A DNA stretch of 39,148 nucleotides from an uncultured Lachnospiraceae bacterium (GTDB lineage Bacteria; Bacillota; Clostridia; Lachnospirales; Lachnospiraceae): NCBI GenBank assembly GCA_902778245.1, contig CACYXH010000016.1:1-39148 (forward strand), in the 5' to 3' direction. The notes beneath the pieces were generated by a model. That model was not told the DNA's origin, did no database searches, and saw only the letters and a list, made by a program, of their open reading frames with translations. The translations under genes were made by a program, and so were the position numbers. Positions 1,263 to 16,476 of the stretch are shown piece by piece. How positions within the stretch are numbered: position 1 is the first letter of the stretch; every line of letters starts with the position of its first letter.

Positions 1263-1273
1263 ATGGCTCCCTC

Positions 1274-4200: not shown

Positions 4201-5809
4201 AGACCGTCTTAGAGGTAACGATCTTCTCCCGGATCGCGTCAATGGGCGGATTCGTTACCTGAGCAAACAGCTGCTTAAAGTAGTTGAACAGAGGCTGATG
4301 GCAGGAAGAGAGCACCGCCAGAGGCGTATCAATGCCCATTGCACTGGTTCCCTCGCTGCCGGTAGCCGCCATATTCAGGATGGACATCCGGTAATCCTCA
4401 TAGTTGTAACCGAAAGCCTTCATCAGCCGCATTCTCTGTTCCGGCGTGTAAGTCTCCACCTTTTTGTTAGGGATTTTCAGATCCTTCAGCTTCACCATGT
4501 ACTGATCCAGCCACTCGCCGTAAGGCTGATTATTCGCGTATTTTAATTTCAGTTCATCATCATTGATGATCTTGCCCTGAACCGTATCCACCAGAAGCAT
4601 TTTCCCCGGATGCAAACGCTCTTTCAAAACAATTTTCGCCGGATCAATATCCAGCACGCCAACTTCGGAGGAAAGGATCACATAACCGTCATCCGTCACA
4701 TAATAGCGGGAGGGGCGCAGACCGTTGCGGTCCAGAACGGCACCCATAATATCGCCGTCAGTAAACAGGATAGAAGCCGGGCCGTCCCACGGTTCCATCA
4801 TGGTAGCGTAGTACTGGTAGAAATCCCGTTCCTTCTGATTCATCACATCATTGTTCGCCCATGGCTCCGGAATAGTGATCATCACCGCCAGCGGCAGGTC
4901 CATGCCGCTCATGGTAAGAAATTCCAGAGTATTATCCAGCATGGCAGAGTCGGAACCTTCCGCATTGATCACCGGAAGGATCTTATGCAATTCCCCTTTA
5001 AAATAGTGGGAAGCCATGGTCTCTTCCCTGGCCAGCATCTTATCCGCATTTCCACGGATGGTATTGATCTCGCCGTTATGTACCATAAAGCGGTAGGGAT
5101 GCGCCCGCTCCCAGCTGGGATTGGTGTTGGTGCTAAATCTGGAGTGCACCAGGGCAATGGCGGAATCATAGTCCGCGTCCTGCAGATCCATAAAGAAGGT
5201 ACGGAGCTGTCCCACCAGGAACATTCCTTTATAAATAATGGTACGGCTGGACATGGAGACCACATAGGTAGTGTCGTTAGACTGCTCAAAACATCTGCGG
5301 GCCACATACAGCCGCCGATCAAAGGGCAAGCCCTTTTCTATATCCTGAGGTTTCTCAATAAACGCCTGCATAATGCAGGGCATCTTTTCCAGTGCTTTGT
5401 GTCCCAGCACTGCTGGATCTGTGGGAACCTCTCTCCAGCCAAGGAACTTCAGGCCTTCTTTTTTCACGATGCTCTCAAACATCTTTTTCGCCTGACCCTG
5501 CTGAAGTACGTCCTGGGGAAAGAAAAACATACCGATACCGTACTCCCTCTCCTCACCTAACCGGATGCCCAGTTTTTTACAGGTTTTTGAGAAGAACTTG
5601 TGGGAGATCTGAAGCAGGATACCCACACCGTCGCCGGTCTTTCCCTCTGCGTCCTTGCCGGCTCGATGCTCCAGGTTCTCCACGATGCTCAGAGCATTCT
5701 CCACCGTGCGGTGCGTCTTTAACCCCTTCACATTCACCACCGCGCCGATACCGCAGTTGTCATGTTCAAATTCAGGTCTGTATAAGCCTGTGTAATTATT
5801 TGTACTCAT
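1274..5809 (-). CDS. gltB: Glutamate synthase large subunit
   Basis: Large, catalytic subunit of glutamate synthase, 1511 residues, the usual length for the bacterial alpha subunit. The N-terminal class II glutaminase domain begins at Cys19 (DNCGIG), so an 18-residue propeptide must be removed to free the catalytic cysteine. The order is then glutaminase (to about 430), central domain, FMN-binding synthase domain with the GAKPGEGG and SPPPHHD segments, the 3Fe-4S ligands in CVMMRVCNLDTC near 1160, and the C-terminal GXGXG beta-helix (about 1280-1470). It releases ammonia from glutamine and channels it to 2-oxoglutarate. It is the first gene of the gltBD operon, downstream of a strong promoter and a structured leader. 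No lesion is visible. Confidence 0.97.
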   Translation of the reverse strand: MSTNNYTGLYRPEFEHDNCGIGAVVNVKGLKTHRTVENALSIVENLEHRAGKDAEGKTGDGVGILLQISHKFFSKTCKKLGIRLGEEREYGIGMFFFPQDVLQQGQAKKMFESIVKKEGLKFLGWREVPTDPAVLGHKALEKMPCIMQAFIEKPQDIEKGLPFDRRLYVARRCFEQSNDTTYVVSMSSRTIIYKGMFLVGQLRTFFMDLQDADYDSAIALVHSRFSTNTNPSWERAHPYRFMVHNGEINTIRGNADKMLAREETMASHYFKGELHKILPVINAEGSDSAMLDNTLEFLTMSGMDLPLAVMITIPEPWANNDVMNQKERDFYQYYATMMEPWDGPASILFTDGDIMGAVLDRNGLRPSRYYVTDDGYVILSSEVGVLDIDPAKIVLKERLHPGKMLLVDTVQGKIINDDELKLKYANNQPYGEWLDQYMVKLKDLKIPNKKVETYTPEQRMRLMKAFGYNYEDYRMSILNMAATGSEGTSAMGIDTPLAVLSSCHQPLFNYFKQLFAQVTNPPIDAIREKIVTSKTVYTGKEGNLLEEKPENCNVIKIENPILTNTDLLKIRNMEIPGYKVEDISITYYKNTSLEKALDRLCLDVDRAYREGANLLILTDKGVDEFQAPIPSLLAVSAVHQHLVKTKKRTSISVILESGEPRDVHHFAALLGYGASAINPYLALDTIHQLIDTDMLQKDYYAAVNDYNQAVVDGIVKIASKMGISTIQSYMGSQIFEAIGISKEVIDKYFTNTVSRISGITMADIEADVAERHKKAFDPLGLQEDLTLDSVGHHISRSAGEKHRYNPQTIHLLQESTKRGDYQMFKEYTAMIDREESGYIRSTMDFVYPEQGVPLEEVESVDSIVRRFKTGAMSYGSISQEAHETLAIAMNILHGKSNTGEGGETLERLEGGPEGQNKCSAIKQVASGRFGVTSRYLVSAQEIQIKMAQGAKPGEGGHLPGKKVYPWIAKTRYSTPGVSLISPPPHHDIYSIEDLAQLIYDLKNANRAANISVKLVSEAGVGTVAAGVAKAGAQVILISGYDGGTGAAPKSSIQNAGLPWELGLAETHQTLIKNGLRNKVRIETDGKLMSGRDVAIAALLGAEEFGFATGPLVTMGCVMMRVCNLDTCPVGVATQNPELRARFKGKPEYVVNYMRFMAQELREYMAKLGFRTLDEMVGRSDLLKKKEILDNPRGYKIDLTNILNNPYAKPGMSVTFDKAQAYDFQLEKTVDERILLKKLQPALEKGQKKSIEIDVKNTDRALGTIFGSEITKRYKDGLPEDTYLVKCHGAGGQSFGAFIPNGLTLELVGDSNDYFGKGLSGGKLIVYPPEGVKFKEDENIVIGNVALYGATSGKAYINGVAGERFCVRNSGATAVVEGCGEHGCEYMTGGRVVILGHTGKNFAAGMSGGIAYVLDEESELYTKVNKNMVSIEKITSKYDVLELKGMIQDHVNYTDSEKGKLILENFEAYLPKFKKIIPHEYKRMQMMIVQMEEKGLSSEQAQIEAFYANTRK

Positions 5810-5990
5810 ACACCAGTTCCTTTCCTGTTTTTTTAATTATATGAGACGATAAAGTTCAGCCGCTCCGGGCCATCCACACGTCAGCTCCGTTGTAATGGTG
5901 AACCTTTAATAAAATTTCCATACGCGGGCGTACCGCATAAAAAAAGGAATCTACGGGCTAAGCCTGCAGACTCCTTCGTCTCAAATCTTG
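5810..5990 (-). promoter_or_regulatory. Structured 5' leader of gltBD
   Basis: About 180 bases separate the predicted transcription start (near 5990) from the gltB ATG, with no ORF of note. After an early terminator hairpin (5946-5974), the leader can form a closing helix between 5899-5907 and 5851-5858 (AAAGGTTCA with TGAACTTT, one bulge). This would enclose about 40 bases containing further GC-rich pairings. A short alternative helix (AGAC-GAAGGA-GTCT) overlaps the 5' arm of the terminator and could act as an anti-terminator. I do not recognise a known riboswitch class here. The pairings were found by eye, not by folding software. Confidence 0.45.
5939..5974 (-). terminator. Intrinsic terminator inside the gltBD leader (possible attenuator)
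   Basis: On the minus strand, GGAGTCTGCAGGC pairs with GCCCGTAGATTCC around a TTA loop: 13 positions with one A-C mismatch and two G-U pairs. Seven T residues follow directly. It lies only about 16 bases after the predicted start of transcription and upstream of gltB. It therefore cannot be the end of a coding transcript from this promoter; it would cut the leader at about 50 nt. The plus-strand side has no T-tract, so it is not a terminator for a rightward gene. Confidence 0.75.
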
Positions 5991-5996
5991 CTCTAC

Positions 5997-6025
5997 ATTA
6001 TACTTTCTTTTCTTAAAAATTACAA
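5997..6025 (-). promoter_or_regulatory. Sigma-A promoter of gltBD
   Basis: Minus strand: -35 TTGTAA (6025-6020), 17-base spacer, -10 TATAAT (6002-5997). The -10 is perfect and the spacing ideal. It is the only good promoter-like pair upstream of gltB, and it drives the leader with the early terminator. Confidence 0.75.
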
Positions 6026-6113
6026 GTCCTTTTTTTAAAGAAATTATGTTTATCTTTTCTCTCCTGGTTCATAATTATGCGGGGGATTTTTGCGATTATA
6101 ATCTATTAATTTC

Positions 6114-6142
6114 TTGATTTTAGCAAAATTTTGCGATATAAT
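6114..6142 (+). promoter_or_regulatory. Promoter of the DUF4143 ATPase with a palindrome in the spacer
   Basis: -35 TTGATT (6114-6119), 17-base spacer, -10 TATAAT (6137-6142), 23 bases before the chosen start codon. The spacer contains the perfect 12-bp palindrome GCAAAATTTTGC (6123-6134). The motif TTTTGCGAT(T)ATAAT occurs twice, around 6088-6102 and at the -10. The palindrome is a plausible operator, but no adjacent regulator gene exists. Confidence 0.7.
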
Positions 6143-6165
6143 ATTGGAAAATGGAGGTGGTCATT

Positions 6166-7374
6166 ATGATTTACAGGCCAATGTATGTAAATAGAATCAT
6201 GAGATATACAGATACGCCATTTGTGAAAATTCTCACTGGTATTCGCCGCTGTGGCAAATCCACGATTCTGCTTATGATTATGGATAATCTTCGGGAGCGC
6301 GGCATCCCGAAAGAACGAATCGTCAGTTATCGCTTTGACTCTATGGAATACGAGGACATGACTTCAAAACAGATGTACACCGAGCTGAAAAGCCGCCTGT
6401 CCCCAAATGGAAAAACCTACCTTTTTTTGGACGAAGTGCAGGATATTGACGGTTGGGAAAAGGTTGTAAACTCCCTTGCATCGGATTTTGATGTGGATAT
6501 CTATGTGACCGGTTCAAATTCTCGAATGATGTCCGCTGAACTTTCTACCTATCTGACCGGACGGTATGTTTCTTTCAGAATCTACACACTGTCCTTTGCC
6601 GAGTACCTCACGTTCAAAGAGCAGTATGCCCCGCTCAATGATATTCGCCTAGAGCTAGACGCTTATATCCGTCTTGGCGGTTTTCCCGCAACGCACACGC
6701 ACGAATATTCGCAAGACGAGATTTACACCATTGTCCATGACATTTATAGCGCCACCATTTTTACTGACATTGTAAAACGAAATCAGATTCGCAAGGTAGA
6801 CCAGTTGGAACGCATTGCAAAATACACATTTTCCAATGTCGGCAACACATTCTCCGCAAAATCCATTGCCGATTATCTGAAATCTGAGCACCGCAGTTTG
6901 GATAACGAAACGGTATATAGCTATTTAGAAAAACTGGAAAAAGCATTTTTGCTGCACCGCTGCTCCCGCTACGATCTGCGTGGCAAGGAGTTCTTAAAAA
7001 CACTGGAAAAATTCTATCTTGCAGATACCTCTCTGCGGTACAGCGTCCTCGGCTACGATGATGACACGGTTGCTGCCGCACTGGAAAATGTAGTGTATTT
7101 GGAACTCTGCCGCCGTGGTTATACGGTTCATGTTGGAAAATTCGGTGACACCGAAATTGATTTTGTCGCAACCCGCAGGAACGAAAAAATCTATGTTCAG
7201 GTAACGCAGGAGATTTCCTCTGAAAAGACTGAAAAACGTGAGTACCAGCATCTACTTGAAATTCAGGACAACTACCCGAAATATGTACTGCGAACGGACG
7301 TGTTCACCGGCGGCAATTATGAAGGCATCAAATCTATGCATGTGGCAGATTTTCTTCTCAGTGACGAGTATTGA
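6166..7374 (+). CDS. ATP-binding protein, AAA_14 plus DUF4143 family
   Basis: A 402-residue member of the widespread AAA+/DUF4143 ATPases whose cellular role is not established. Visible features are Walker A GIRRCGKS (about residues 26-33), Walker B LFLDEVQ (about 90), a sensor-like VTGSNS segment, a helical DUF4143 middle region, and a C-terminal restriction-endonuclease-like core (ENVVYLEL, then GDTEIDFVA, then YVQVT). In that core the usual catalytic lysine is replaced by glutamine, so nuclease activity is doubtful. The ORF can open at 6151, but GGAGGTGG at 6153-6160 is the ribosome binding site for the ATG at 6166. It is a stand-alone gene with its own promoter and terminator. Proteins of this family are often found in accessory regions of Firmicutes and Bacteroidetes. 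Confidence 0.9.
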   Translation: MIYRPMYVNRIMRYTDTPFVKILTGIRRCGKSTILLMIMDNLRERGIPKERIVSYRFDSMEYEDMTSKQMYTELKSRLSPNGKTYLFLDEVQDIDGWEKVVNSLASDFDVDIYVTGSNSRMMSAELSTYLTGRYVSFRIYTLSFAEYLTFKEQYAPLNDIRLELDAYIRLGGFPATHTHEYSQDEIYTIVHDIYSATIFTDIVKRNQIRKVDQLERIAKYTFSNVGNTFSAKSIADYLKSEHRSLDNETVYSYLEKLEKAFLLHRCSRYDLRGKEFLKTLEKFYLADTSLRYSVLGYDDDTVAAALENVVYLELCRRGYTVHVGKFGDTEIDFVATRRNEKIYVQVTQEISSEKTEKREYQHLLEIQDNYPKYVLRTDVFTGGNYEGIKSMHVADFLLSDEY

Positions 7375-7423
7375 AGATCCTACTCCCGTTCCAAGGATCT
7401 CATCAGATTCTGCAAAAACTTGT

Positions 7424-7452
7424 AAAATGCAGTTGCAATTCTCTGCATTTTT
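7424..7452 (+). terminator. Intrinsic terminator after the DUF4143 ATPase
   Basis: AAAATGCAG (7424-7432) pairs perfectly with CTGCATTTT (7443-7451) around a 10-base loop, and the 3' arm runs into a short T-tract. It lies 50 bases after the stop codon. Confidence 0.65.
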
Positions 7453-7483
7453 GCTCTGCAACTTTCTGTAATTTTATTTTACA

Positions 7484-7760
7484 CTAAACAATGAAGTATC
7501 CTGCGGCCCTCTCCGGTTTTCTTATCTTGTCCGCATCTTTTCCTATGCGAAATTGTTCTCTGGTGATGGGCTTGGTGGACAGATCAAAGAACTCTCCTTC
7601 ACCTGCCATCATACAGAATACTTCCAGAGACTGCCTTGTTTCCGGTTTCGGATAGATCTGCGCCATGTATAGATTTTTCTCAAATATCTCATTCAGCTTC
7701 TCTGAGCCAATACTTTCGATGCTTCCCTGGATAGAGATCGCCTTTTTGTGTATGAAAGTC
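7484..7760 (-). pseudogene. C-terminal fragment of a PNPOx-like flavin-binding protein
   Basis: About 90 codons remain open on the minus strand. The frame reads through KAISIQGSIESIG, then MAQIYPKPETRQSLEVFCM, then GEGEFFDLSTKPITRE. This resembles the C-terminal half of small pyridoxamine-phosphate-oxidase-like (split beta-barrel) flavoproteins; family assignment is from memory. Proteins of this group are usually 130-160 residues and the N-terminal half is missing. The frame stays open back to about 7760, where the hairpin and IS200-like end begin. This suggests that insertion removed the 5' half. The internal ATG at 7666 is not preceded by a convincing ribosome binding site. Confidence 0.6.
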
Positions 7761-7761
7761 C

Positions 7762-7786
7762 TTCTCCCCAGCTATGCTGGGGAGAA
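7762..7786. repeat. Perfect 11-bp inverted repeat (hairpin) at the gene break
   Basis: TTCTCCCCAGC (7762-7772) and GCTGGGGAGAA (7776-7786) form a perfect stem with a 3-base loop. It has no T-tract on either side, so it is not a typical terminator. It sits exactly between the truncated PNPOx fragment and the IS200-like end. Terminal hairpins are a hallmark of IS200/IS605 elements, so it is probably part of that end. Confidence 0.6.
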
Positions 7787-7812
7787 TAGTGTAAGTGGAG
7801 ACGGTGAGGATA

Positions 7813-7868
7813 TTAATTGAAAACCTCCTATGATATATTGAGAATGGTGTCGCAAGCCAAACTCAAAC
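7813..7868 (+). mobile_element. Remnant of an IS200-type left end
   Basis: The plus strand here aligns by eye with the region just upstream of the IS200-like tnpA remnant at 17236-17300 (minus strand). Shared blocks are CTCCTATGATA, TGAGAA, GGTGT, GC.AGC and CTCAAA, at roughly 80 percent identity over about 50 bases. No transposase follows; the similarity runs into the 3' end of the bacteriocin ABC gene. It faces right, toward the bacteriocin/agr block. Confidence 0.55.
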
Positions 7869-8549
7869 ATCAAAAATACTCTTATCCTCTGTGATATGTC
7901 CATCACAGATCTTAATAATACGCTCACATTGCGCTGCAAGGTTGTCATTATGAGTTACCATAACGATGGTCTTGTCCTCTTTCCAAATCTGTTTTAATAG
8001 ACCCATAACAATCTGCCCATTTTTCTGATCCAGCAAACCTGTCGGTTCATCAGCAAATATTACTTCCGGTTCGTTGACAAGGGCTCTGGCAATTGCTACA
8101 CGTTGTTTTTCTCCACCGGAAATATTACGCACACACTTATCCAATAACTTTTCGATTCCTAAACATTCCAAAATCTTTTCGATTCTATATCTCATTTCCT
8201 TTCTGCTGCAAACGTTATTATAAATTAGGGGAATCTCCACATTTTGGAAAACTGTATAATCCTGAATAAGGGCGAAATCTTGCAGGATAAAGCCAAAATG
8301 TTTGTTTCTGAAACAAACACGTTCCCTCCGTGACATACTGAAAATATCTGCCCCCTCATACTCGTACCGGCCATGGGCAGGTTGCAGAATTGCCCCCATT
8401 ATACTAAGCATGGTTGATTTGCCAGATCCCGAGGGGCCAATGACAGCATTTAAGCTTCCTTTATCAATTTTTAAATTGATATCATGGAGAACCGGTGTAA
8501 TAACAGAGTTTTGAGAATAACTGTGCGAAATATGCATTAAATTAATCAA
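7863..8549 (-). CDS. ABC transporter ATP-binding protein, bacteriocin-export type
   Basis: A 228-residue ATPase subunit. It has Walker [10 protein letters not shown] (about 40-48), a Q-loop in GFILQDFALIQDYTVFQN, signature ISGGEKQR (about 143), Walker B VIFADEPTG and a switch histidine in VTHND. The Q-loop neighbourhood resembles the ATPases that accompany lactococcin-972-type bacteriocins; this subfamily assignment is from memory. It overlaps the upstream permease by 8 bases. A TTG start at 8549 has AAAGGA at good distance; an ATG at 8537 is the alternative. It is the last gene of the agrD-bacteriocin-permease-permease-ATPase run and probably energises export of, or immunity to, the bacteriocin. 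Confidence 0.9.
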   Translation of the reverse strand: MINLMHISHSYSQNSVITPVLHDINLKIDKGSLNAVIGPSGSGKSTMLSIMGAILQPAHGRYEYEGADIFSMSRRERVCFRNKHFGFILQDFALIQDYTVFQNVEIPLIYNNVCSRKEMRYRIEKILECLGIEKLLDKCVRNISGGEKQRVAIARALVNEPEVIFADEPTGLLDQKNGQIVMGLLKQIWKEDKTIVMVTHNDNLAAQCERIIKICDGHITEDKSIFDV

Positions 8550-9708
8550 AATTTGTTTCCTTTCTCAATAAAAGATATAGGTCCTCTATATTCATTTTAA
8601 CTAGCGGTAATGCAGGGAGCAAAACGAGAATGACACCGGTTAGTAACTTCGTTGGCCATAAGACATTTTGTTCCCTGAGCAAAAGTTCGCATATGCCATA
8701 ATCCAAAACAAACATTATAAAAAAAGGAAAGTCTAGTCTTATAAATAGGTCGAAAATTGTTGAGCCATATAGCAGATGAACCGCAATCTCTTTTTTATGC
8801 TTGTTCACAAATTGCAGTAACATAGAAACAATAGTTACCGATGTAAGCAAAAACATAAGCACAACAAAACACATACTAATGCCTATAAGCTCCAGATTAT
8901 CCTCCATGATGTAGGCGATCTGTTCTTTCATACTGCGAAAATTATAGTCGGGATGCAACTGCTGCAATTCATCTTGTATCGCATCTTTTGTCTTCCGATC
9001 TGCATTGATATATAGATTATTAAAAAACACACCGTCCCATTGTTCAACTATATAGCCCATGGGGATGACAATATATTGATCTAACCAGATAGCGTTTCCC
9101 GACCACTTTGGATTCAAATAAAAAGTATGCGGGCTTAAAAATCCAATCACCTGATATTGATTATCTATGATCTGATTTAATGTAATCTCTGCAGCGTAAT
9201 CGTTTCCCATGAGAATAGGAATATATCCATCCTCTGTCAGCATATTCTCATACTCGCTCGCAGTGAACAGCCTTCCATCTGAAACTGACCATGAAAAAAA
9301 TTCAGAAAAATAATCTGTTATAAACAGTGTTTGATATTCTCTTAATTTATTTTGCGGGTCAGAATAAGAGAAAGAATCCCCATGATCTACAAAGTCTTCT
9401 AGCATAATGGACGAGTCATCAAAAGAAAAACATTTCCCTCCGGTCCTCTCGTATATATTTTTTTCAATTTCCTGATTTCCTTCCGGCACATAATAAACAT
9501 CATTATTTATCAAATACCATGTCGTGTCCTGAACCATTGAGATTACTTCCAGTTCTTTTTTAAATTCTGACCATGGGGAATAAAATACCCCGGCATACTG
9601 CTGAAGGAACATCACGACTAAAATCTGAATGTTCAAAACAAAATATAATTTCTTTTGTTTCCAAATATCCCGAAATCCTAATTTTAATTGAGTACTTATT
9701 CTTCGCAT
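8542..9708 (-). CDS. ABC transporter permease, FtsX/MacB-like topology (bacteriocin export or immunity)
   Basis: About 388 residues. One membrane helix lies near the N-terminus (FVLNIQILVVMFL). A polar extracytoplasmic domain of about 200 residues follows, then three helices (about 250-275, 300-325 and 340-360). This is the FtsX/MacB arrangement of one plus three helices around an external domain. It is shorter than the long 7TM immunity proteins usually found with lactococcin 972. The ATG at 9708 directly follows the upstream stop codon; a TTG at 9714 would overlap it. The gene is coupled to the short permease before it and the ATPase after it. Exact substrate not shown. Confidence 0.8.
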   Translation of the reverse strand: MRRISTQLKLGFRDIWKQKKLYFVLNIQILVVMFLQQYAGVFYSPWSEFKKELEVISMVQDTTWYLINNDVYYVPEGNQEIEKNIYERTGGKCFSFDDSSIMLEDFVDHGDSFSYSDPQNKLREYQTLFITDYFSEFFSWSVSDGRLFTASEYENMLTEDGYIPILMGNDYAAEITLNQIIDNQYQVIGFLSPHTFYLNPKWSGNAIWLDQYIVIPMGYIVEQWDGVFFNNLYINADRKTKDAIQDELQQLHPDYNFRSMKEQIAYIMEDNLELIGISMCFVVLMFLLTSVTIVSMLLQFVNKHKKEIAVHLLYGSTIFDLFIRLDFPFFIMFVLDYGICELLLREQNVLWPTKLLTGVILVLLPALPLVKMNIEDLYLLLRKETNFD

Positions 9709-9710
9709 AC

Positions 9711-10256
9711 TCAAATGAACTCTTTATGATAAACCCTTTCACAATTAAGCACACATCCTGTAACATACAATAAAACAGACAGTTCCACTTTTATCATCAT
9801 GGGACACCGAAGTTGAATATGCATAAGCAGCATACTCTTTTGCAGCAAATATTCCAAACCGTTTCCGCAAAGAAAAACGGCTATCATCAAAACCATAAAA
9901 CCTATATTAATTCTCAAACATATTTCTATTTTTGATGCACCATAGAAATGGCGAATCGACCATTCTTCGTACTTTGCCTGAATCCAGTAATCTAGAATAT
10001 TCCATACATCAAGGATAAGCAGCCCAAGAACTAAACCAAACACAAAAACAAGGGTAGTAGAATTATCTGGCGCACTACTTGAAATCTGAAATGTTTCATC
10101 TGATACCACTTGTTGAGTAGTCAGGCTAGCTCTGCTCTTTTGCAAATCAATTACTGCCCAACTTGTATATGCGACAGCAGTAATAACAGAATAGAACATG
10201 ATGAGAATAAACGCATTTGTAAACAAATATCTTGTTTTTTTACAGAAACTATTCAT
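9711..10256 (-). CDS. Short membrane protein, second permease-like subunit of the exporter
   Basis: A 181-residue protein with four predicted membrane segments (about 10-35, 65-90, 110-135 and 155-172). A short external stretch lies between the first and second. The topology mirrors a minimal FtsX-type permease with almost no extracytoplasmic domain. I do not recognise the family. Its ATG overlaps the bacteriocin stop (ATGA), and its own stop abuts the start of the larger permease, so all three are translationally coupled. Likely roles are the partner half of a heterodimeric exporter or the immunity protein; neither is proven. Confidence 0.75.
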   Translation of the reverse strand: MNSFCKKTRYLFTNAFILIMFYSVITAVAYTSWAVIDLQKSRASLTTQQVVSDETFQISSSAPDNSTTLVFVFGLVLGLLILDVWNILDYWIQAKYEEWSIRHFYGASKIEICLRINIGFMVLMIAVFLCGNGLEYLLQKSMLLMHIQLRCPMMIKVELSVLLYVTGCVLNCERVYHKEFI

Positions 10257-10532
10257 TGTATATAACTATGATACTTGTAACATGTTTTTAATGGGTTATT
10301 TGTTTTACTTGCACTAACGTGAGTTCCATTCCACCCCGTTTTCCATCCACTATCATATGATCCCTCCTGGATTCTAACTCTGGCACCTCTGTATCCGCTC
10401 TCATTATAAGCCCAGGCCTCAATTCCTGTTGTTATGTTACTCCAAGTATAATATCCGTAAAGAGTTTCGCCAACCACAGGTGTTACACAAGCCAAAGAAG
10501 ATGCCATTATCAGCGCTACTATAGATTTTCAT
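10253..10532 (-). pseudogene. Lactococcin-972-like bacteriocin precursor with a start-region frameshift
   Basis: The 84-residue open frame (from 10507) has a region with GYYTWSN, RGARVRI, SGWKTGW and NPLKTCYKY segments. This resembles the Trp/Tyr-rich lactococcin 972 family; similarity is moderate. The good ribosome binding site (AGGAGG, 10544-10539) precedes an ATG at 10532 that is in a different frame and would give only 31 residues. If the A4 run at 10529-10526 had one A fewer or two more, that ATG would read MK(K)SIVALIMASSLACVTP, a clean signal peptide running straight into the toxin. As written, the toxin frame has no ribosome binding site of its own. It is an indel, a phase-variable start, or a sequencing error. 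It lies between agrD and the exporter genes. Confidence 0.7.
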
Positions 10533-10571
10533 AGTTAACCTCCTAACTCTAGATAAATATTCTAATTTTTA

Positions 10572-10718
10572 TCAGTTCTTTTTTGCTTTAATTACCTCTG
10601 GAATCTTAGGGTCAAATAACCCCGGCACCATACATTTTCCCACTGCTTTTCCGCCCAAAAACACGGCAAAATCACCTAATTCTTTTATAATGACTTTTTT
10701 TACAGATTTATCTTTCAT
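10572..10718 (-). CDS. agrD: AgrD-like cyclic peptide autoinducer precursor
   Basis: A 48-residue ORF too short for standard calling. It has an excellent ribosome binding site (GGAGGAGGTGGTGAAG before the ATG at 10718). It follows the AgrD plan: a basic amphipathic N-terminal helix (MKDKSVKKVIIKELGDFAVF), a glycine-containing turn, a single cysteine at position 29 (GKCMVPGLF), and a C-terminal acidic/proline segment DPKIPEVIKAKK. That tail matches the PK.PE pattern that follows the signal in clostridial AgrD peptides. By analogy AgrB would cleave after the ring segment and the cysteine would form a thiolactone. The ring would lie within CMVPGLF; its exact end is uncertain. It is the first gene of the bacteriocin transcript, and agrB lies 1.6 kb away. 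Confidence 0.82.
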   Translation of the reverse strand: MKDKSVKKVIIKELGDFAVFLGGKAVGKCMVPGLFDPKIPEVIKAKKN

Positions 10719-10808
10719 CTTCACCACCTCCTCCCATTTCAACTCGTAAAACTATTGATACTGCATTTTCATAATATCTCTGTATCTATATGGTTTTATC
10801 TCGAACTA

Positions 10809-10837
10809 ATTATATCAATTCCAAGAATTACTTTATA
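10809..10837 (-). promoter_or_regulatory. Probable promoter of the agrD-bacteriocin operon
   Basis: Minus strand: a perfect -10 TATAAT (10814-10809), 90 bases upstream of agrD, but no recognisable -35 at 16-18 bases. This is what an activator-dependent promoter looks like. Upstream, around 10890-10918, are three ACG-centred 9-base repeats and one TACGTTAAT that fits a LytTR half site. The expected second half site at about 21 bases is not there. Confidence 0.5.
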
Positions 10838-10944
10838 AAAAATGAACAAGCAGAAAAATATCAGTAAAAAGCGTTTTTATTTTTTGATAGAAAACGAAAA
10901 TTACGTCATTAACGTATCATGTTTCTTAAATTTATTTTATTGGA

Positions 10945-10974
10945 TTGACTTTATATCTATGAACTATATATAAT
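10945..10974 (+). promoter_or_regulatory. Promoter of agrC
   Basis: -35 TTGACT (10945-10950), 18-base spacer, -10 TATAAT (10969-10974). The predicted start of transcription falls near 10981, leaving a very short leader with ribosome binding site AGGGGGA just before the gene. It diverges from the agrD promoter. Confidence 0.7.
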
Positions 10975-10997
10975 ATTTCGTAAAGGGGGATTGGGTG

Positions 10998-12305
10998 ATG
11001 ATTTATTTATTGATCTACTGTTTGAACGCGCTTGTTTACTTATTGCCCCTTTTAACTTTTCTCCCTTTCCATATTTCGCTGCTCAACAAGATCAGCATAT
11101 ACATTATTATACTTGGCAATATTTTCATAATGGTTTACTGTATTGGCAACATAGGTGTCGTTTTCCTCCTACTGTCTGTCAGTCTCTTTCTAAGCTTTCT
11201 CGACACCCACAGATTGCGCAATGTATGTCTATTTTTTGCTTCGTATATGTTTTGTGTATTTTGGGATAATTTATTTACTGTTTTATGGAATATTCTGGGA
11301 TTTCCAATCACAGATATTCTCAGGCAGAATACCGCGCTATATATTACTTACACTGTACTATATACCCTGTTGCTTTTCCTCCTCAGCAAACTACTTGTTT
11401 GGGGAATCCACAAAATAATCATCCCAAAAAACTATGCTGTGATTCCAAAAGAAGTCTGGGGGGCTATTTTCATCAATCTCCTTATTTGTCTGATTATTTT
11501 CGTTTTTAATATAGTTGTTGGAGAGCGAATTGGATATAATAAGAATATCATTGTGTTCAACTGCATTCTCTTCGGTTTTTATATGATGGTATCCACTATA
11601 TCAATCCTTAATTCCATAAAAACATACATAGTAAAATCAGATATGCAATCTAAGCAGGATGCATACGATACGCTTCAAAAATATACCCAACAAATTGAAA
11701 CTATGTATTCTGACATTCGGTCTTTCAAGCACGATTATCTTAATATAATGGCTTCCATGTCAGGCTTTATTGAAGAAGGCGATATGAGTGGACTAACACA
11801 GTACTTTTCAAAGAGTATTGTTCCTCTTAGTTCTCAGATAAATAAAAGCAATTATAAACTCAATCAGCTTATGAACATTAAAATTTCTGAAATAAAAAGT
11901 ATTATTTCAGCAAAGATAACTTATGCTCATGAAATAGGTGTTGAAGTAAATGTCGAAATTATCGATCCCATCTACACTATTCCAATGGGGACTCTTGATC
12001 TGGCAAGAGTTCTGGGGATTTTTCTTGATAATGCAATAGAAGGAGCCCTAGAAACAGACACCCCCACAATATCATTTGCCATGATCAACAATATAGGCTC
12101 TGTTACCATTATCATTTTAAACAACTATATCAAGCACAACATCCCTTATTATGATCTCAAAAAAATTTCCATCTCTACTAAAGGAAAGAATCGAGGAATC
12201 GGATTACATAATGCGGAGAATATTTTATCTAAATATCCTAATATCGTTCATGATACAGAAATGAAAGACCATGAATTTATTCAGCGTCTGGAAATTTTCA
12301 AATAG
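10998..12305 (+). CDS. agrC: AgrC-like sensor histidine kinase (GHKL type)
   Basis: Membrane histidine kinase of about 435 residues. The N-terminal 205 residues are almost entirely hydrophobic and form six or seven membrane helices, as in peptide-sensing AgrC/VirS kinases. The H-box is SFKHDYLN with His246 (counted from the GTG at 10995), the N-box is FLDNAIEGA (about 343-351) and the G-box is KNRGIGLHNA (about 398-407). It should sense the processed AgrD signal and phosphorylate the LytTR regulator at 13061. GTG 10995 and ATG 10998 are alternative starts behind AGGGGGA. The last 8 bases overlap the convergent agrB. Confidence 0.92.
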   Translation: MIYLLIYCLNALVYLLPLLTFLPFHISLLNKISIYIIILGNIFIMVYCIGNIGVVFLLLSVSLFLSFLDTHRLRNVCLFFASYMFCVFWDNLFTVLWNILGFPITDILRQNTALYITYTVLYTLLLFLLSKLLVWGIHKIIIPKNYAVIPKEVWGAIFINLLICLIIFVFNIVVGERIGYNKNIIVFNCILFGFYMMVSTISILNSIKTYIVKSDMQSKQDAYDTLQKYTQQIETMYSDIRSFKHDYLNIMASMSGFIEEGDMSGLTQYFSKSIVPLSSQINKSNYKLNQLMNIKISEIKSIISAKITYAHEIGVEVNVEIIDPIYTIPMGTLDLARVLGIFLDNAIEGALETDTPTISFAMINNIGSVTIIILNNYIKHNIPYYDLKKISISTKGKNRGIGLHNAENILSKYPNIVHDTEMKDHEFIQRLEIFK

Positions 12306-12861
12306 CCCACCTTGTCTTTATATGTTGCAGAATTAATGTAACCACCTCAAACAGAGCGGCAAGTGTTATCAGGTCTCTTATTTGGGAACAACAAATAGCG
12401 GTCATCATGTAAGAAAATACAAGAATACAGGAACAATATTTCTGAGATATTCGATTTGACTGGCCAATGGGATTATTCTCTGTTCCTTGTGGTGACAGCC
12501 AATACGTTATTATAATTAATATAATAAACAGAACCACAGTCTGCAGGATATTTAAAGTTAGCATTTCGCTGATCTTTACTCCGCCAATAACCATACATCC
12601 CGTTCCAATCAAGCATCCTATACTGCTTTTCAAGTGTATGCCTCCGGATACCATCCTGAAAATGCCAAAGACTAACATAAAGATCAACGTTTCTGTCAAA
12701 ATCGATAAATACAATGCCAAAAGCAGAATGAGGCCAATCATACATACATCATGCAGCAGAACTTCAATTCCCAGCTTCATTTTTGCAAGTTCAATTTCTT
12801 CACGGGTTATGAATTTAGCAAAGTATTGTGTAATTTTATCTGCAATGTCTTCCAAAATCAT
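12298..12861 (-). CDS. agrB: AgrB-like peptide-processing membrane protease
   Basis: Accessory gene regulator B family protein, about 187 residues with five or six membrane helices. It carries the family motif RMVSGGIHLKSSIGC. The catalytic His and Cys fall at 76 and 83 counted from the ATG at 12861, almost the same spacing and position as in staphylococcal AgrB. It should cut AgrD after the ring segment and close the thiolactone. The frame is open from a GTG at 12867, but AGGTG sits right for the ATG at 12861. It is transcribed alone, convergent with agrC and divergent from agrA, and is not next to agrD, which is unusual for this family. Confidence 0.93.
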   Translation of the reverse strand: MILEDIADKITQYFAKFITREEIELAKMKLGIEVLLHDVCMIGLILLLALYLSILTETLIFMLVFGIFRMVSGGIHLKSSIGCLIGTGCMVIGGVKISEMLTLNILQTVVLFIILIIITYWLSPQGTENNPIGQSNRISQKYCSCILVFSYMMTAICCSQIRDLITLAALFEVVTLILQHIKTRWAI

Positions 12862-12880
12862 TTTCACCTCATGATGTTGA

Positions 12881-12909
12881 ATTATATCTTATCGTCCGTC
12901 TTTATAAAT
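12881..12909 (-). promoter_or_regulatory. Possible activator-dependent promoter of agrB
   Basis: A perfect TATAAT (12886-12881, minus strand) lies 20 bases before the agrB start, with no consensus -35 upstream. Like the agrD promoter, a TATAAAG lies a short distance upstream, but at a different spacing (13 instead of 16 bases). Confidence 0.35.
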
Positions 12910-12995
12910 AAAACTAGAATAAAAAGGGAAATATGAAATCATCTTCGTTTTAGGAAGACAGAAATTATGCAAATTGCTACATTTATTATATTGTC

Positions 12996-13023
12996 TTGCA
13001 ACAAAAATAATATACGGTATAAT
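12996..13023 (+). promoter_or_regulatory. Promoter of the LytTR response regulator
   Basis: -35 TTGCAA (12996-13001), 16-base spacer, -10 TATAAT (13018-13023). It is followed by the ribosome binding site AAGGGAAAGG (13046-13055) and the ATG at 13061. Confidence 0.6.
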
Positions 13024-13060
13024 GAATTTATAATATTGAATATTTAAGGGAAAGGTTATT

Positions 13061-13786
13061 ATGCTCGACATCTATATTTGTGAAGACAATGAACAGCAGT
13101 TAAAGCTGTTTGAAAAATACGTTCGTGATGTGATAATGATTGAAGAATTGGATATGCATATATGCGCTTCCTCTAAAAATCCGTATGAAATAATTGATCA
13201 TGTCAAGACTGCCAAAAATCTAGGTTTATTTTTCTTGGATATTGATTTGAACTCCTCCATCAATGGCCTTCAATTAGCACAGGAAATCAGAAAATATCAG
13301 CCCCGATGTTTTATTATTTTTATTACATCTCACTCCGAAATGAGTTTTCTTACCTTTCAATATAAAGTCGAGGCGCTTGATTACATCATTAAAGATAATT
13401 TTTCAAAAATTCACGAAAAAATTCATGAATGTATGCTCAATGTTAACGAAAAGTATTCATCTGTCAATAATCATATAAATAAGGTATTTACTATAGCGCT
13501 AGGAGATAAAAATCTCAATATTGATTTTGATAATATACTCTTTTTTGAAACATCCTCTAATATTCACAAAATTATCCTTCACGCTAAAAATCGTATGATT
13601 GAGTTTTCCGGTCAACTGAAGGATGTTCAAGCTCAGTTGGACAGCAGGTTTTACAGATGCCATCGTTCCTACATTGTAAACAAGCACAACATCAAAGAAA
13701 TCGATTTCAAGCAGAGTATAGTTTATATGACAAATGGTGAAACATGCCTGTTATCCGTTCGGATGAAAAAAGGTCTTAAACATTGA
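13061..13786 (+). CDS. agrA: AgrA-like LytTR response regulator
   Basis: A 241-residue response regulator. The receiver domain (1-125) has the acidic pair in CEDN (8-9), phospho-acceptor Asp60 in FFLDIDL and a lysine in LDYIIKD. The C-terminal LytTR DNA-binding domain (about 140-241) contains FFETSSNIHKIILH and FYRCHRSYIVN, very like AgrA. It is the expected partner of the kinase at 10998. Its probable targets are the agrD-bacteriocin and agrB promoters, both of which have a good -10 and a poor -35. It has its own promoter rather than lying downstream of agrC, so the classical agrBDCA operon is broken up here. Confidence 0.92.
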   Translation: MLDIYICEDNEQQLKLFEKYVRDVIMIEELDMHICASSKNPYEIIDHVKTAKNLGLFFLDIDLNSSINGLQLAQEIRKYQPRCFIIFITSHSEMSFLTFQYKVEALDYIIKDNFSKIHEKIHECMLNVNEKYSSVNNHINKVFTIALGDKNLNIDFDNILFFETSSNIHKIILHAKNRMIEFSGQLKDVQAQLDSRFYRCHRSYIVNKHNIKEIDFKQSIVYMTNGETCLLSVRMKKGLKH

Positions 13787-13904
13787 GGTTCTATTTACCG
13801 TACCACTGCTTCTACCGGACATTCCCAATAACAGTTTTCGCAGTGCAGGTGCGCTTCTGCTCCACCACATACGCAATTGCGATTCCCCCAATGCAATATA
13901 GAAA

Positions 13905-14027
13905 TGGGGCTGTTGCAAAAAACTGGTAAGGAGTTTCGCATATCCATATGTACGCATCTAATGTCACAAACAGCAAGCGAACATAGGATAACGGAACTCC
14001 GTTAGCCAATATTTTGCAACGGCCCCA
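13905..14027. repeat. Small element bounded by 16-bp inverted repeats (MITE or IS ends)
   Basis: TGGGGCTGTTGCAAAA (13905-13920) and TTTTGCAACGGCCCCA (14012-14027) are inverted copies with one mismatch, 123 bp end to end. A GGG-rich tip followed by TGTTGCAAAA is typical of insertion-sequence termini. No transposase fits inside and I see no clear target duplication. A 65-codon TTG-started minus-strand frame crosses the whole 13787-14033 gap, including one repeat; I do not believe it is a gene. Nothing else is seen in this gap. Confidence 0.55.
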
Positions 14028-14033
14028 CCTTTT

Positions 14034-15725
14034 TTATATCTGAACATTAAACAGGTTTCTCAGCTGATTTGCAATGTCATCGCTGTCCGCCTTAATAAAG
14101 GCTGCCTCGTTAATATTAGAAAGTTTTTCCAGCTCCCCGGTGTTGTCGTAATTGTAAGCGATAGAATAGATCGGCACCTGGAGACCGCCCACGATTCCTG
14201 TGATCCGATCCAGGGTATAACCCTCATTCTGATCGCCGTCCGTGAGCAGAAACAGCATCAGTTTCGCATCCGGCACTTCTTTCGCTTTCTCTTCCAGCAT
14301 CTGCAGCCCGGTCAGCGCCGCATCATAGGTGGCGGTGGATCCGGAAGCGGACAGTCCCTTCACCTCCCCGGAGAAGTAAGCTCTCTGGGTAGCGTCAAAC
14401 TGCGCGATGGGCAGATTGATCTTGACCCTGCTGGAATAACTGATCAGCCCCACATAGTGTTCCGATCCGATATAGGTAGACGCATTGACCAGGGATCGTT
14501 TCAGTGAATTGATGGGTTCTCCGTCCATAGAACCGGAAACATCCGCCACAAACACCGCAATGATGGGTTTTCCACCGTTCTTGTTCTGCTTCCATACCTT
14601 CTGTGCGGCCAGATATCCGGCGCCGTCCAGCCCCGCGTTTCCCGGGTCATAATCATCATGCAGATTAAACCCTTTCTGGGAAGCCAGCTTCTGGCTCTTC
14701 TCATTCTGGCAATACTCCACAAACAGCTTTGCGGCTTCCTTCTCTTCCTCACTGCAGTAATCGAAAGTGTAGACCGGATGGTCATGCCGGATACCTGCCG
14801 GAATATACTCATATCCCTTAAGCTCCGGTGTGTTTACATAGGCCTGCTCTTCCATAACCATGGCATTGATAATACCTTTCGCAGCCTTATTTCGAAGCAC
14901 TGCGGTGGTGTAGGCCGCCGTAGGCGCTACTTTCTGATAGTCCGTCAGTTTTTCTACCGCCTGCTGGGAAAGAGGATCGTTCTCATCAAAAGATTTCAGC
15001 ATCTCTGCCAGAATATTAAGGCCGGTGGAGGAGGTATAGGGATTTGTGTAAGCAAACACCAGATCCTGGTTGATGGTTGCCTCCAGCACATTTCCCACGG
15101 TTGCCTCTTTGTATTTTTCAATAAATTTGTCATAGACGTCTTTTTTGATCAGAATACCCGCCGTATTCCCCGCGATGCGATCCGTCAGCTTCTCTATACC
15201 CACACCGGAAGAGCGCAGCATCTCCCCCCAGGCGTAATTGCTGGGAGCAAAAACCTGCGGCCGGTACCCGCCGGAAACGATATAGGTAAGTCCTTCACCG
15301 GAGGTGATCTTCCGCACAGATACGCTTACCGTCTTATTCCCAATTTTGTAACCTTCCTTATTGAAATCTTTTGCCACCAGATTCATCCAGTCATCCGGCG
15401 CCTCGGCGCTCATCTCCGTTGCAGCCGCAATCTCAATATCAATGTCTCCGCTGCCCGTCACCGTCAGAGGGAATGTACTGATATCCGCCAGGGCATCCGC
15501 CTCGGAAATCTCGTCCGCGTCAATATCCAGCGTGGGATTTTGCTCTGTCGTCACAGCCACCTTTTTCATCAGGGAGGAAAGTTCCGCCTGTGCATCTTCA
15601 TAAGAGAGCGCATCTTTTCTGTCCTCGTTCTCCGTTCTGGTTCCGCCGCTGCACCCGGAAAATGAGCAGGCCATGACCACAGCTAACCCTATACTCGCAC
15701 ACTTCTTTGCAAATCTCGTCTTCAT
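14034..15725 (-). CDS. Lipoprotein with substrate-binding-like and VWA domains
   Basis: A 563-residue surface protein. A lipoprotein signal (VVMACSFSGC, Cys25) anchors it outside the membrane. Residues about 85-380 look like a type 2 periplasmic binding fold, and residues 385-563 are a von Willebrand A domain with an intact MIDAS start, DVSGS at 395-399, then ASGSTATYD and LLTDGDQN. The metal site implies divalent-cation-dependent protein or ligand binding. It is the last gene of a three-gene operon, 1 base after the membrane protein before it. This domain combination occurs in other clostridia; I know of no assigned function. Confidence 0.85.
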   Translation of the reverse strand: MKTRFAKKCASIGLAVVMACSFSGCSGGTRTENEDRKDALSYEDAQAELSSLMKKVAVTTEQNPTLDIDADEISEADALADISTFPLTVTGSGDIDIEIAAATEMSAEAPDDWMNLVAKDFNKEGYKIGNKTVSVSVRKITSGEGLTYIVSGGYRPQVFAPSNYAWGEMLRSSGVGIEKLTDRIAGNTAGILIKKDVYDKFIEKYKEATVGNVLEATINQDLVFAYTNPYTSSTGLNILAEMLKSFDENDPLSQQAVEKLTDYQKVAPTAAYTTAVLRNKAAKGIINAMVMEEQAYVNTPELKGYEYIPAGIRHDHPVYTFDYCSEEEKEAAKLFVEYCQNEKSQKLASQKGFNLHDDYDPGNAGLDGAGYLAAQKVWKQNKNGGKPIIAVFVADVSGSMDGEPINSLKRSLVNASTYIGSEHYVGLISYSSRVKINLPIAQFDATQRAYFSGEVKGLSASGSTATYDAALTGLQMLEEKAKEVPDAKLMLFLLTDGDQNEGYTLDRITGIVGGLQVPIYSIAYNYDNTGELEKLSNINEAAFIKADSDDIANQLRNLFNVQI

Positions 15726-15726
15726 A

Positions 15727-16476
15727 CTAATCCTCCTTTATCGAATCCAGAAGCAGTTTCTTGTAAAGTTCCAGAGAATAGGTGTCCTGGGAGGAGGCCC
15801 CCTGTCTGTTCAGAAATTCCGTCAGTGCAAACACGAATTCCTTCGTTTGCGTGAGCTGCTCCTGATTAGCGTCACGGCACTCTTCTATCAGTTTCTCCAA
15901 TCTCGCAGCGTCTTCCTGTGAAGCGGGATCGTATACCGTCATATAGTTGAGTACTTTTCGGATGTTCCTGCAGATATACTGTTCCACCTGATCCAATACC
16001 TCCTCGGTATCGCCAAGCGTGCTTGCCTGATTGCTGGTAAGAAGATTTGCCAGCCGCTCCTGATAGCTGTCCATCTGACGCATCTGAGCCACCAGGCCTC
16101 CAATGGCATCCTGAAGCGCCTTCCATTTTCCGGAAGCATTCTCTTTCAGCAACTCCCGCACTTTTACGTCCGTAAGACGTCCGTTCACCGGGAGATCCGC
16201 CTCCAGCTTCTTTCTACCGGCGCTTTGTTCCCTCTCTCTTAACTGATTTTCCCTCTCCTCTTTTTTCGCAGCATTCTTTTTGCGGGCGTCCCGCAGGGAT
16301 AAGATCAGGAGTAATACCACCAGAGCCGCCTCAGCAATAAGGCCCCCCTGGTAGAATCCCCGGTAAGAACGGATCCCTATGCTGATCACCACGGAATCCT
16401 TTGACAGCACCAGCATGAGAATGCCGATTCCCACGATCACCAAGAAAACCGATATCGTAATCCTGAGTTTTCTCAT
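15727..16476 (-). CDS. Two-helix membrane protein with a long cytoplasmic helical region
   Basis: 249 residues. Two membrane helices (about 5-24 and 45-62) are followed by a basic linker (RDARKKNAAKKEERE) and a mostly helical, charged cytoplasmic domain to the end. I do not recognise a named family with confidence; XpaC-like proteins have a similar plan but no motif confirms it. Its ATG overlaps the stop of the coiled-coil gene by 4 bases. Its stop lies 1 base before the VWA lipoprotein, so the three proteins are made together and may form one membrane-spanning assembly. Confidence 0.75.
   Translation of the reverse strand: MRKLRITISVFLVIVGIGILMLVLSKDSVVISIGIRSYRGFYQGGLIAEAALVVLLLILSLRDARKKNAAKKEERENQLREREQSAGRKKLEADLPVNGRLTDVKVRELLKENASGKWKALQDAIGGLVAQMRQMDSYQERLANLLTSNQASTLGDTEEVLDQVEQYICRNIRKVLNYMTVYDPASQEDAARLEKLIEECRDANQEQLTQTKEFVFALTEFLNRQGASSQDTYSLELYKKLLLDSIKED

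What the first reader, a model, noticed from the sequence alone, without database searches (positions are those of the whole stretch)
7863..13786. Quorum-controlled bacteriocin locus with a scattered agr set
Seen: an AgrD-like peptide gene, a bacteriocin-like gene, two permease-like proteins and an ABC ATPase lie in one minus-strand run with overlapping ends. Next to them lie agrC (plus), agrB (minus) and agrA (plus), each apparently with its own promoter. Known: agr genes normally form one agrBDCA operon, and lactococcin-972-type clusters normally consist of toxin, a large 7TM immunity protein and an ATPase. Inference: the signal precursor was captured as first gene of the toxin transcript, so that toxin and signal rise together when AgrA is active. 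The gene order D, C, B, A on alternating strands and the merged transcript look unlike any agr layout I know.
Basis: partly seen in the sequence, partly recalled or inferred. Interest (0 to 1): 0.78.

Follow-up and report, generated by a model that had tools for sequence, protein, structure and literature searches.

The report
Alternating-strand quorum-sensing module with bacteriocin cargo
A rumen bacterium carries a cell-density signalling system whose signal gene sits apart from its processing gene, at the head of a toxin-and-transporter gene run; relatives share this unusual layout but carry different cargo behind the signal gene.

Summary
On the minus strand an AgrD-like gene, a small toxin-like gene, two permease ORFs and an ABC ATPase form one run; agrC(+), agrB(-) and agrA(+) lie beside it. 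The genome is a Lachnospiraceae MAG (near-identical locus: RUG14788). No second agrB was found, and no second agrD over a cut-off.

The interpretation needs revising. The alternating D-C-B-A layout is not a one-off capture. Of 60 surveyed loci, 9 (six genera) have alternating C-B-A; in 7 of these an agrD is recognised, divergent from agrC. Their AgrC proteins group together (SH-aLRT 93). Behind agrD the cargo differs: a lactococcin-like toxin here; DUF2712 secreted proteins, other secreted proteins with ABC exporters, or lanthipeptide genes elsewhere. Likeliest: an agr variant in which agrB moved between agrC and agrA, leaving agrD heading exchangeable cargo. Five relatives carry 21-bp-period direct repeats in agr intergenic regions (22 overlapping 8-mer pairs; shuffle maximum 6); the window does not, but shares a 17-bp element with one relative.

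Lactococcin-972 membership was tested and not met. In this assembly the toxin's RBS-preceded start is out of frame; the sister copy is intact. Co-transcription, AgrA control and the signal's structure remain inferred.

The parts
10572..10742 (-). agrD-like signal precursor (56 aa as listed from TTG; probable start ATG at 10718 after an AGGAGG, giving 48 aa); core ...GKCMVPGLFDPKIPEV...
   Evidence: PxxP tail and place shared with agrD of relatives; 4 of 5 relatives' agrD tested match TIGR04223, 1 over cut-off; only match in the genome to an AgrD profile that includes it
10253..10507 (-). toxin-like secreted peptide, 84-aa frame from an internal ATG; the RBS-preceded ATG at 10532 reads another frame in this assembly; intact in the sister genome (93 aa)
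   Evidence: homologues L079 and L078 at 48 and 43% identity with a permease behind; no family match over a cut-off
9711..10256 (-). permease half 1 (181 aa), FtsX-like
   Evidence: PF02687 18.3 bits, below cut-off 25.5; tblastn to the L078 permease E 3.9e-5, which matches FtsX at 30.4 bits
8542..9714 (-). permease half 2 (390 aa), MacB-PCD-like
   Evidence: PF12704 25.0 bits (cut-off 27), DUF1430 11.3 bits (cut-off 28.2); tblastn to L079 E 1.5e-39
7863..8549 (-). ABC ATPase; best NCBIfam model TIGR03608 (putative bacteriocin export ABC transporter), under its cut-off
   Evidence: 211.5 bits against cut-off 254.85
10743..10994 (.). divergent agrD/agrC regulatory region; 17-bp element 10889-10905; promoter-like 10945-10974(+) with 18-nt spacer
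10995..12305 (+). agrC, sensor histidine kinase with GHKL domain; FKHDY box
12298..12867 (-). agrB, processing/export peptidase; H78 and C85 invariant in 9 aligned AgrB; 3' end overlaps agrC by 8 nt
   Evidence: PF04647 101.5 bits; alignment A1
12868..13060 (.). divergent agrB/agrA regulatory region; promoter-like 12908-12881(-) and 12996-13023(+)
13061..13786 (+). agrA, LytTR response regulator; D60 invariant in 9 aligned proteins

Best explanation
This is an agr-type cyclic-peptide quorum-sensing module of a lineage found in several Lachnospiraceae genera, in which the four agr genes alternate in strand (D left, C right, B left, A right), agrB is tail-to-tail with agrC, and agrD stands alone as first gene of a divergent run that carries exchangeable bacteriocin or exporter cargo. 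Shown: gene content, layout, its recurrence with different cargo, the grouping of the AgrC proteins, and no second agrB or over-cut-off agrD in the genome. Inferred: AgrB, made from its own transcript, trims and cyclises AgrD at the Cys (six-residue ring CMVPGL most likely, five or seven possible) and releases the signal; AgrC senses it and AgrA acts on the D/C and B/A intergenic regions; signal, toxin and transporter rise together. The toxin is probably Sec-exported (the sister copy has a signal-peptide-like start), with the permease/ATPase serving immunity or export. Origin, inferred: agrB most likely moved from a unit divergent to agrCA into the C/A junction, leaving agrD with the cargo.
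For: Alternating C-B-A in 9 of 60 surveyed loci (sample chosen mostly by AgrB similarity; the 9 include the window's near-copy L042 and two same-genus pairs), agrD recognised in 7 of the 9. AgrC tree: the 9 plus 2 partial loci form one group (SH-aLRT 93), inside an 18-row group (99) whose other 7 rows are B<C>A> loci. 10 of 397 family genomes hold an AgrC of this group. Different cargo behind agrD; the first cargo gene is on agrD's strand in 8 of 8 loci with agrD, within 160 nt in 6 of 8. Period-21 direct repeats in 18 intergenic regions of 9 loci pooled: 22 overlapping 8-mer pairs, shuffle mean 1.16, maximum 6 in 200; a leave-one-locus-out profile is at p 0.03 or better in 9 of 18 regions. 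17-bp element 10889-10905, exact only here in the genome and in the D/C-side region of L098. No terminator-like site on the minus strand between 10742 and 7863 and no promoter-like site between agrD and the toxin.
Against: The window's own intergenic regions have no period-21 pair and no significant profile match (p 0.189 and 0.194); L083 and L098 have none either (p 0.10 to 0.85). A staphylococcal AgrA consensus recalled from memory gave nothing above shuffles in any of 18 regions. No good promoter-like site lies close upstream of agrD. In the two nearest distinct relatives by AgrC, L083 and L098, no agrD was found near agrC and their genomes give no AgrD-profile match better than E 0.365; in L147 agrB too is missing: the agrD link is not kept everywhere. 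The toxin gene is out of frame at its start in this assembly. The AgrC grouping is not a starred branch (93, quick method).
Confidence: 0.6

Rival explanations
1. Capture: a standard agr set lost its own agrD place and a toxin operon picked up agrD in this lineage.
For: Toxin cassettes of the same kind exist without agrD: L079 (toxin, permease, ATPase, no agr match in 16 kb) and L078 (beside another LytTR/histidine-kinase pair).
Against: agrD sits at the same place beside agrC in 7 of 9 alternating loci, 5 of them (L081, L082, L084, L085, L088) with other cargo, so agrD was probably there before this toxin. Cargo exchange behind agrD explains this better.
Confidence: 0.12
2. A decaying locus: agr and toxin genes are chance survivors of rearrangement, the toxin is a pseudogene, and nothing is co-regulated.
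For: Toxin start out of frame; permease in two ORFs where L079 has one; L083 and L098 lack a recognised agrD, L147 lacks agrB.
Against: The other frames are intact in two genomes, with AgrA, AgrB, AgrC, AgrD and the 84-aa toxin frame identical and the permeases and ATPase at 99.1% or more; layout kept across genera; AgrB H78 and C85 and AgrA D60 kept (their roles are recalled from S. aureus); small length errors are common in draft MAGs (general knowledge).
Confidence: 0.18
3. The signal feeds only the regulators, and the toxin run has its own control; the neighbourhood is a hitch-hiking island.
For: No significant AgrA-type repeat in the window's own intergenic regions; 64 nt between agrD and toxin leaves some room for a start.
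Against: No promoter-like site at 9/12 between agrD and toxin; the first cargo gene follows agrD on the same strand in 8 of 8 loci.
Confidence: 0.2

Closest known systems
Clostridial split agr (Clostridium acetobutylicum agrBD + agrCA + CA_C0082; PMC10301443, abstract and passages seen)
   Same: agr genes in more than one transcript; a LanM-like effector gene beside agr, reported there as agr-controlled; predicted six-residue ring AIPs
   Different: There agrB and agrD stay together, agrC and agrA stay together, and the LanM-like gene follows agrCA; here all four alternate in strand, agrD is away from agrB, and the cargo is behind agrD
Staphylococcal agrBDCA / RNAIII (PMC12312760, passages seen)
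   Same: AgrB, AgrD, AgrC, LytTR AgrA; divergent control region; AgrA binds direct repeats (PMC4227749, passages seen)
   Different: One operon plus an RNA effector; here no Rfam family reached its gathering score and the divergent unit is signal gene plus cargo
Enterococcus faecalis fsrBDCA (PMC12312760, passages seen)
   Same: Control through the response regulator without RNAIII; Ser-lactone signal, as predicted for most relatives here
   Different: Locus order fsrBDCA; nine-residue ring
Lactococcin-972 clusters (PMC11161930, passages seen; PF09683 named in PMC13289728, passages seen)
   Same: Small secreted toxin, membrane protein and ABC ATPase in a row; ATPase best matches TIGR03608
   Different: Toxin has no PF09683 or NCBIfam match; membrane protein is FtsX/MacB-like in two ORFs; led by agrD

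Membership tests
agr quorum-sensing system | AgrB peptidase with catalytic His and Cys | tested here: met
   PF04647 101.5 bits; H78 and C85 invariant in 9 aligned AgrB; their catalytic role is recalled from S. aureus
agr quorum-sensing system | AgrD with Cys or Ser ring residue and PxxP tail | tested here: met
   CMVPGLFDPKIP; P-X-X-P as AgrB-binding motif, PMC3901668 passage. The window agrD itself has no TIGR04223 match; 4 of 5 relatives' agrD tested match at E 0.034 or better, 1 over cut-off
agr quorum-sensing system | AgrC kinase and LytTR AgrA | tested here: met
   AgrC 202 and AgrA 233 bits to the NCBIfam equivalog models, under their cut-offs of 500 and 400
agr quorum-sensing system | signal is produced and sensed | not testable with these tools
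   needs culture or heterologous expression
standard agrBDCA operon | agrB and agrD adjacent, all on one strand | tested here: not met
   D and B separated by agrC; strands -,+,-,+
lactococcin 972 family | toxin matches PF09683 or an NCBIfam model | tested here: not met
   no match at E up to 5 for the sister's intact toxin; none at E up to 1 for the window frame; L079 homologue has only weak unrelated matches; no PDB chain better than E 0.66
lactococcin 972 family | ATPase of the lactococcin-972 group (TIGR03608) | tested here: not met
   best model but 211.5 bits under cut-off 254.85
lactococcin 972 family | large DUF1430-type membrane protein | tested here: not met
   DUF1430 11.3 bits, cut-off 28.2; two ORFs of 181 and 390 aa
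lactococcin 972 family | toxin - membrane protein - ATPase order | tested here: met
   (same order in L079)
lactococcin 972 family | Sec-type signal peptide | tested here: inconclusive
   sister copy starts with a short charged and hydrophobic stretch; no signal-peptide predictor was available

The most novel reading that the evidence does not exclude
Gut and rumen Lachnospiraceae hold a distinct agr architecture that works as a plug-in quorum circuit for bacteriocins: the signal precursor is made on the same message as whatever weapon follows it, so signal dose tracks weapon dose, while the processing enzyme is on a separate message that overlaps the receptor message tail-to-tail and so can act as a mutual antisense brake. 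Cargo is exchanged behind agrD while the C-B-A core is kept, and most members would use Ser-lactone rings.
Probability: 0.3. Interest if true: 0.75.

Novelty: new variant of a known kind. Interest (0 to 1): 0.56.

Why it matters
It shows that agr, usually drawn as one operon, has a lineage in gut bacteria where the signal gene is tied to exchangeable antimicrobial cargo instead of to its processing enzyme. That gives a simple way to look for density-controlled bacteriocins (behind a lone agrD divergent from agrC), predicts unusual signals (Ser-lactone, probably six-residue rings), and offers a testable case of convergent, overlapping agrB and agrC.

Tried and rejected
Staphylococcal AgrA-box consensus (recalled) scanned in pairs over 18 intergenic regions: nothing above shuffles. 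A de novo period test was then made; a profile from its 5 contributing loci, leaving the tested locus out, does not find a site in the window. Region limits were taken from longest ORFs, so some regions may hold a little coding sequence: the L088 agrB ORF is only 157 aa, and for L090 the 'B/A' region is just the 126 nt upstream of agrB.

Lactococcin-972 membership: no family match and no PDB chain better than E 0.66. Mobile origin: the sister's toxin was not found in plasmids, agrB not in phage records, agrA relatives on plasmids are all under 60% identity (116 records); against this, agrA and agrB match phage protein families of unknown function (phrog_8810 171 bits; phrog_10353 49.7 bits), so phage-borne relatives exist. 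RNAIII-like RNA: no Rfam match at gathering score. The one AgrB scan of genome contigs found only RUG14788; broader sampling came from the genome search.

Layout count: one further C>B<A> reading (second set of L126) comes from pairing neighbours of two adjacent agr sets and is not counted. L147 was found after the tree and is not in it. One search also flags small ORFs as 'd' that are plainly not AgrD (reverse frames of other genes); those beside agrC or agrB with a PxxP-type tail were taken by eye. In one search only the best 4 first-look candidates of a genome were scored, so its count is a lower bound.

No print was found of the alternating layout in the searches (open-licence PMC only; one search listed 15 of 26 papers and 12 of 31, the others all that matched). 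Passages were read in PMC13289728, PMC11161930, PMC10838665, PMC10301443 (abstract too), PMC4227749, PMC12312760, PMC8748961 and PMC3901668; the rest were seen as listings. This does not exclude description elsewhere.
Full report
What was checked. The window is contig G000:C16 of a 2.96-Mb genome in 180 contigs, 95.4% complete. A public MAG, uncultured Lachnospiraceae RUG14788, carries the same locus (L032); G011 is probably that MAG (contig of 33793 bases in both). The run on the minus strand is agrD, toxin, permease half 1, permease half 2, ABC ATPase, with 64 nt between agrD and the toxin frame and overlaps of 4, 4 and 8 nt after that. agrC(+) and agrB(-) are convergent and overlap by 8 nt; agrB and agrA diverge. 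The island is AT-rich: 30-39% GC in every 400-base bin from 7800 to 13799, against 44-54% in 13 of the 15 other bins from 5000 to 16999.

Only one agr set was found. The own genome gives one AgrB by protein and by PF04647, no TIGR04223 match over its cut-off (three matches at E 0.5 or worse; such weak matches also ring in 10 of 14 control genomes) and one match to an AgrD profile that includes the window's own. No other AgrD-like ORF lies beside agrB.

Relatives. A search of 397 genomes of the family with the window's AgrB found 40 with a match at E up to 1e-6, the own genome included; a profile of nine AgrB over 392 genomes of the order found 94 at E up to 1e-15; four genomes of one genus were added. 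I took 57 loci from these (L081-L137) and added the window, L042 and L041: 60 loci, chosen by AgrB similarity or from earlier calls, not at random and not all that matched. Nine read C>B<A>: window, L042, L081, L082, L083, L084, L085, L088 and L098, from six genera by the tool's genus codes. In seven an agrD stands beside agrC on the other strand; in L083 and L098 none was found. Two more are partial: L089 (C and B, near a contig edge) and L090 (C, B, D; agrA not within the 12-kb locus). Other loci show many other orders, among them A>C>B>, B>C>A> and B<C>A>.

One group. In a quick maximum-likelihood tree of 59 AgrC rows the nine alternating loci and the two partial ones form one group (SH-aLRT 93), inside an 18-row group (99, starred) whose other seven rows are B<C>A> loci; two further B<C>A> loci (L134, L137) lie elsewhere in the tree. 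In those seven, where agrD was recognised (L086, L087, L097), it is on agrB's strand and near it. The simplest story, an inference, is that agrB moved from a unit divergent to agrCA into the C/A junction and agrD stayed. A search with the AgrC profile found this group (E at or below 1.2e-146, next best 1.4e-116) in 10 of 397 family genomes: G011, G237, G141, G061, G103, G431, G118, G206, G021 and G140 (at most 4 candidates per genome scored). G140 keeps C and A but no agrB was found in 17 kb (L147).

Cargo. Behind agrD on the same strand come: window and L042, toxin-permeases-ATPase; L081, a 244-aa secreted protein, two membrane proteins, an ABC ATPase; L082 and L085, a DUF2712 secreted protein (36.8 and 32.1 bits, cut-off 22), lipoprotein-like proteins, membrane proteins, an ABC ATPase; L088, a 356-aa lipoprotein-like protein, membrane proteins, an ABC ATPase; L084, a VanZ/RDD protein, four lantibiotic-like precursors (one tested: salivaricin M family, 100 bits, cut-off 60) and LanM; L090, a LanM gene (DUF4135 337 bits, LANC_like 58 bits) starting at the end of agrD. 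The ATPases of L081, L082, L085 and L088 match ABC_tran at 94-109 bits; three of the four membrane proteins tested (L081, L082, L088) match no Pfam family at E 0.01, the fourth (L085) matches ABC2_membrane_5 at 22.3 bits, under its cut-off of 25. 'Secreted', 'lipoprotein-like' and 'membrane protein' otherwise rest on my reading of the sequences. The first cargo gene lies on agrD's strand in 8 of 8 loci with agrD, and within 160 nt in 6 of 8 (589 nt in L081, 369 nt in L084). The gaps hold no ORF of 30 aa or more in window, L042, L082 and L084; L081 has two opposite-strand ORFs of 34 and 70 aa there and L085 one of 55 aa across its 27-nt gap, none evidence of a gene.

The toxin. A search of 397 family genomes gave 6 at E up to 0.01: own, sister, two good ones (G430 7.4e-17, G139 1.8e-15) and two weak ones with stops inside. 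In L079 the order is toxin, one 536-aa FtsX-like permease, ATPase, with no agr match in 16 kb; in L078 the toxin and permease follow another LytTR regulator and kinase. So the cassette is modular and presumably works without agr elsewhere. It is not a member of the lactococcin-972 family by any model tested. In the window the ATG behind the ribosome-binding site reads a different frame from the conserved toxin; the sister copy is one frame of 93 aa. This may be an assembly error or a real break.

Control regions. A de novo test asked at which distance 8-mers recur (7 of 8 or better, at least two G or C) in 18 intergenic regions of nine loci pooled. Distance 21 gave 22 pairs (overlapping 8-mers, about six sites); 200 dinucleotide shuffles gave mean 1.16 and maximum 6, and no shuffle exceeded 12 at any distance from 12 to 60. 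Distance 38 gave 9 pairs (shuffle mean 1.1, maximum 8), and distances 37, 43 and 53 gave 5 to 7. The period-21 pairs come from L081, L082, L084, L088 and L090 (5 of 9 loci), with units like CCTAAACG. AgrA of S. aureus binds two direct repeats (PMC4227749, passages). A leave-one-locus-out profile reaches p 0.005-0.03 in 9 of 18 regions (D/C of L081, L082, L084, L085, L088, L090; B/A of L084, L085, L088), but p 0.19 in both window regions and 0.10-0.85 in those of L083 and L098. The window, L083 and L098 form their own branch in the tree. The window shares an exact 17-bp element (10889-10905) with the same region of L098 (score 27, best of 40 shuffles 18; of 30 comparisons 7 reached their own shuffle maximum, this by the widest margin). 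It is present without mismatch only once in the genome, with four 2-mismatch places against one for the control pattern, and in 10 of 164 loci, all copies of window or sister except L098. L083 has a shorter form in its B/A region. This is a candidate operator, no more.

Signal. Window core GKCMVPGLFDPKIPEV; relatives KSVVVGVYEPPVP, KSIFWGVYEPPVP, KSTSIFYYEKEIP, KSPICGLFEPRIP, SSLAGLYEPKIP. A ring of six residues ending before F/Y fits best by analogy; Ser in place of Cys would give lactones, known from S. pseudintermedius and E. faecalis, and six-residue rings are known from clostridia (PMC12312760, PMC10301443 passages). All of this is prediction.

Verdict. Observation confirmed, interpretation partly supported. 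It is a new variant of a known kind: an agr lineage with alternating strands and exchangeable cargo behind agrD. Co-transcription, AgrA control, signal structure and toxin activity are not shown.

Noticed in passing
window 10253-10532: The RBS-preceded start of the toxin gene is out of frame with the conserved toxin frame in this assembly, while the sister genome has one intact frame.
   Followed up: partly
window 1-17003 against L042: Identity to the sister is 99.4% or more in the aligned gene stretches from 1 to 13786 (98.7-99.6% in the short spacers listed), then falls to 96.7% in the vWA gene and 94.1% beyond, as if a block including the island had been exchanged between lineages.
   Followed up: partly
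window 13798-13880; L032 13447-13530: A short element right of the island is 80% like one left of the island in the sister genome, where the window has other sequence.
   Followed up: no
window 8542-10256; L079 8083-9693: The permease is two overlapping ORFs here and in the sister, but one 536-aa protein in L079.
   Followed up: partly
L081, L082, L084, L085, L088 agrD: Ring residue appears to be Ser in these five relatives (L085 also has a Cys in the core), Cys in the window, suggesting lactone signals.
   Followed up: partly
L083 and L098: C-B-A alternate with cargo divergent from agrC but no agrD was found there: possible listeners without a signal of their own, or a missed divergent agrD.
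   Followed up: partly
L090 and L034 (G021): agrD runs into a LanM gene at a contig end; agrA with a LanM-like end and lanthipeptide-like ORFs is at another contig end of the same genome: perhaps one cluster.
   Followed up: no
L121, L125: Two agr sets lie side by side in G559 and G572.
   Followed up: no
window 12298-12305 and relatives: agrC and agrB 3' ends overlap in window, L042, L081, L082 and L085 and lie within 4 nt in L084, L088 and L098 (8 of 11 loci of the group).
   Followed up: partly
window 13061-13786: agrA matches a phage protein family of unknown function strongly (phrog_8810, 171 bits).
   Followed up: no
window 7763-7785: Short strong hairpin (CTCCCCAGC/GCTGGGGAG) just beyond the ATPase gene, without a T run (by eye).
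   Followed up: no
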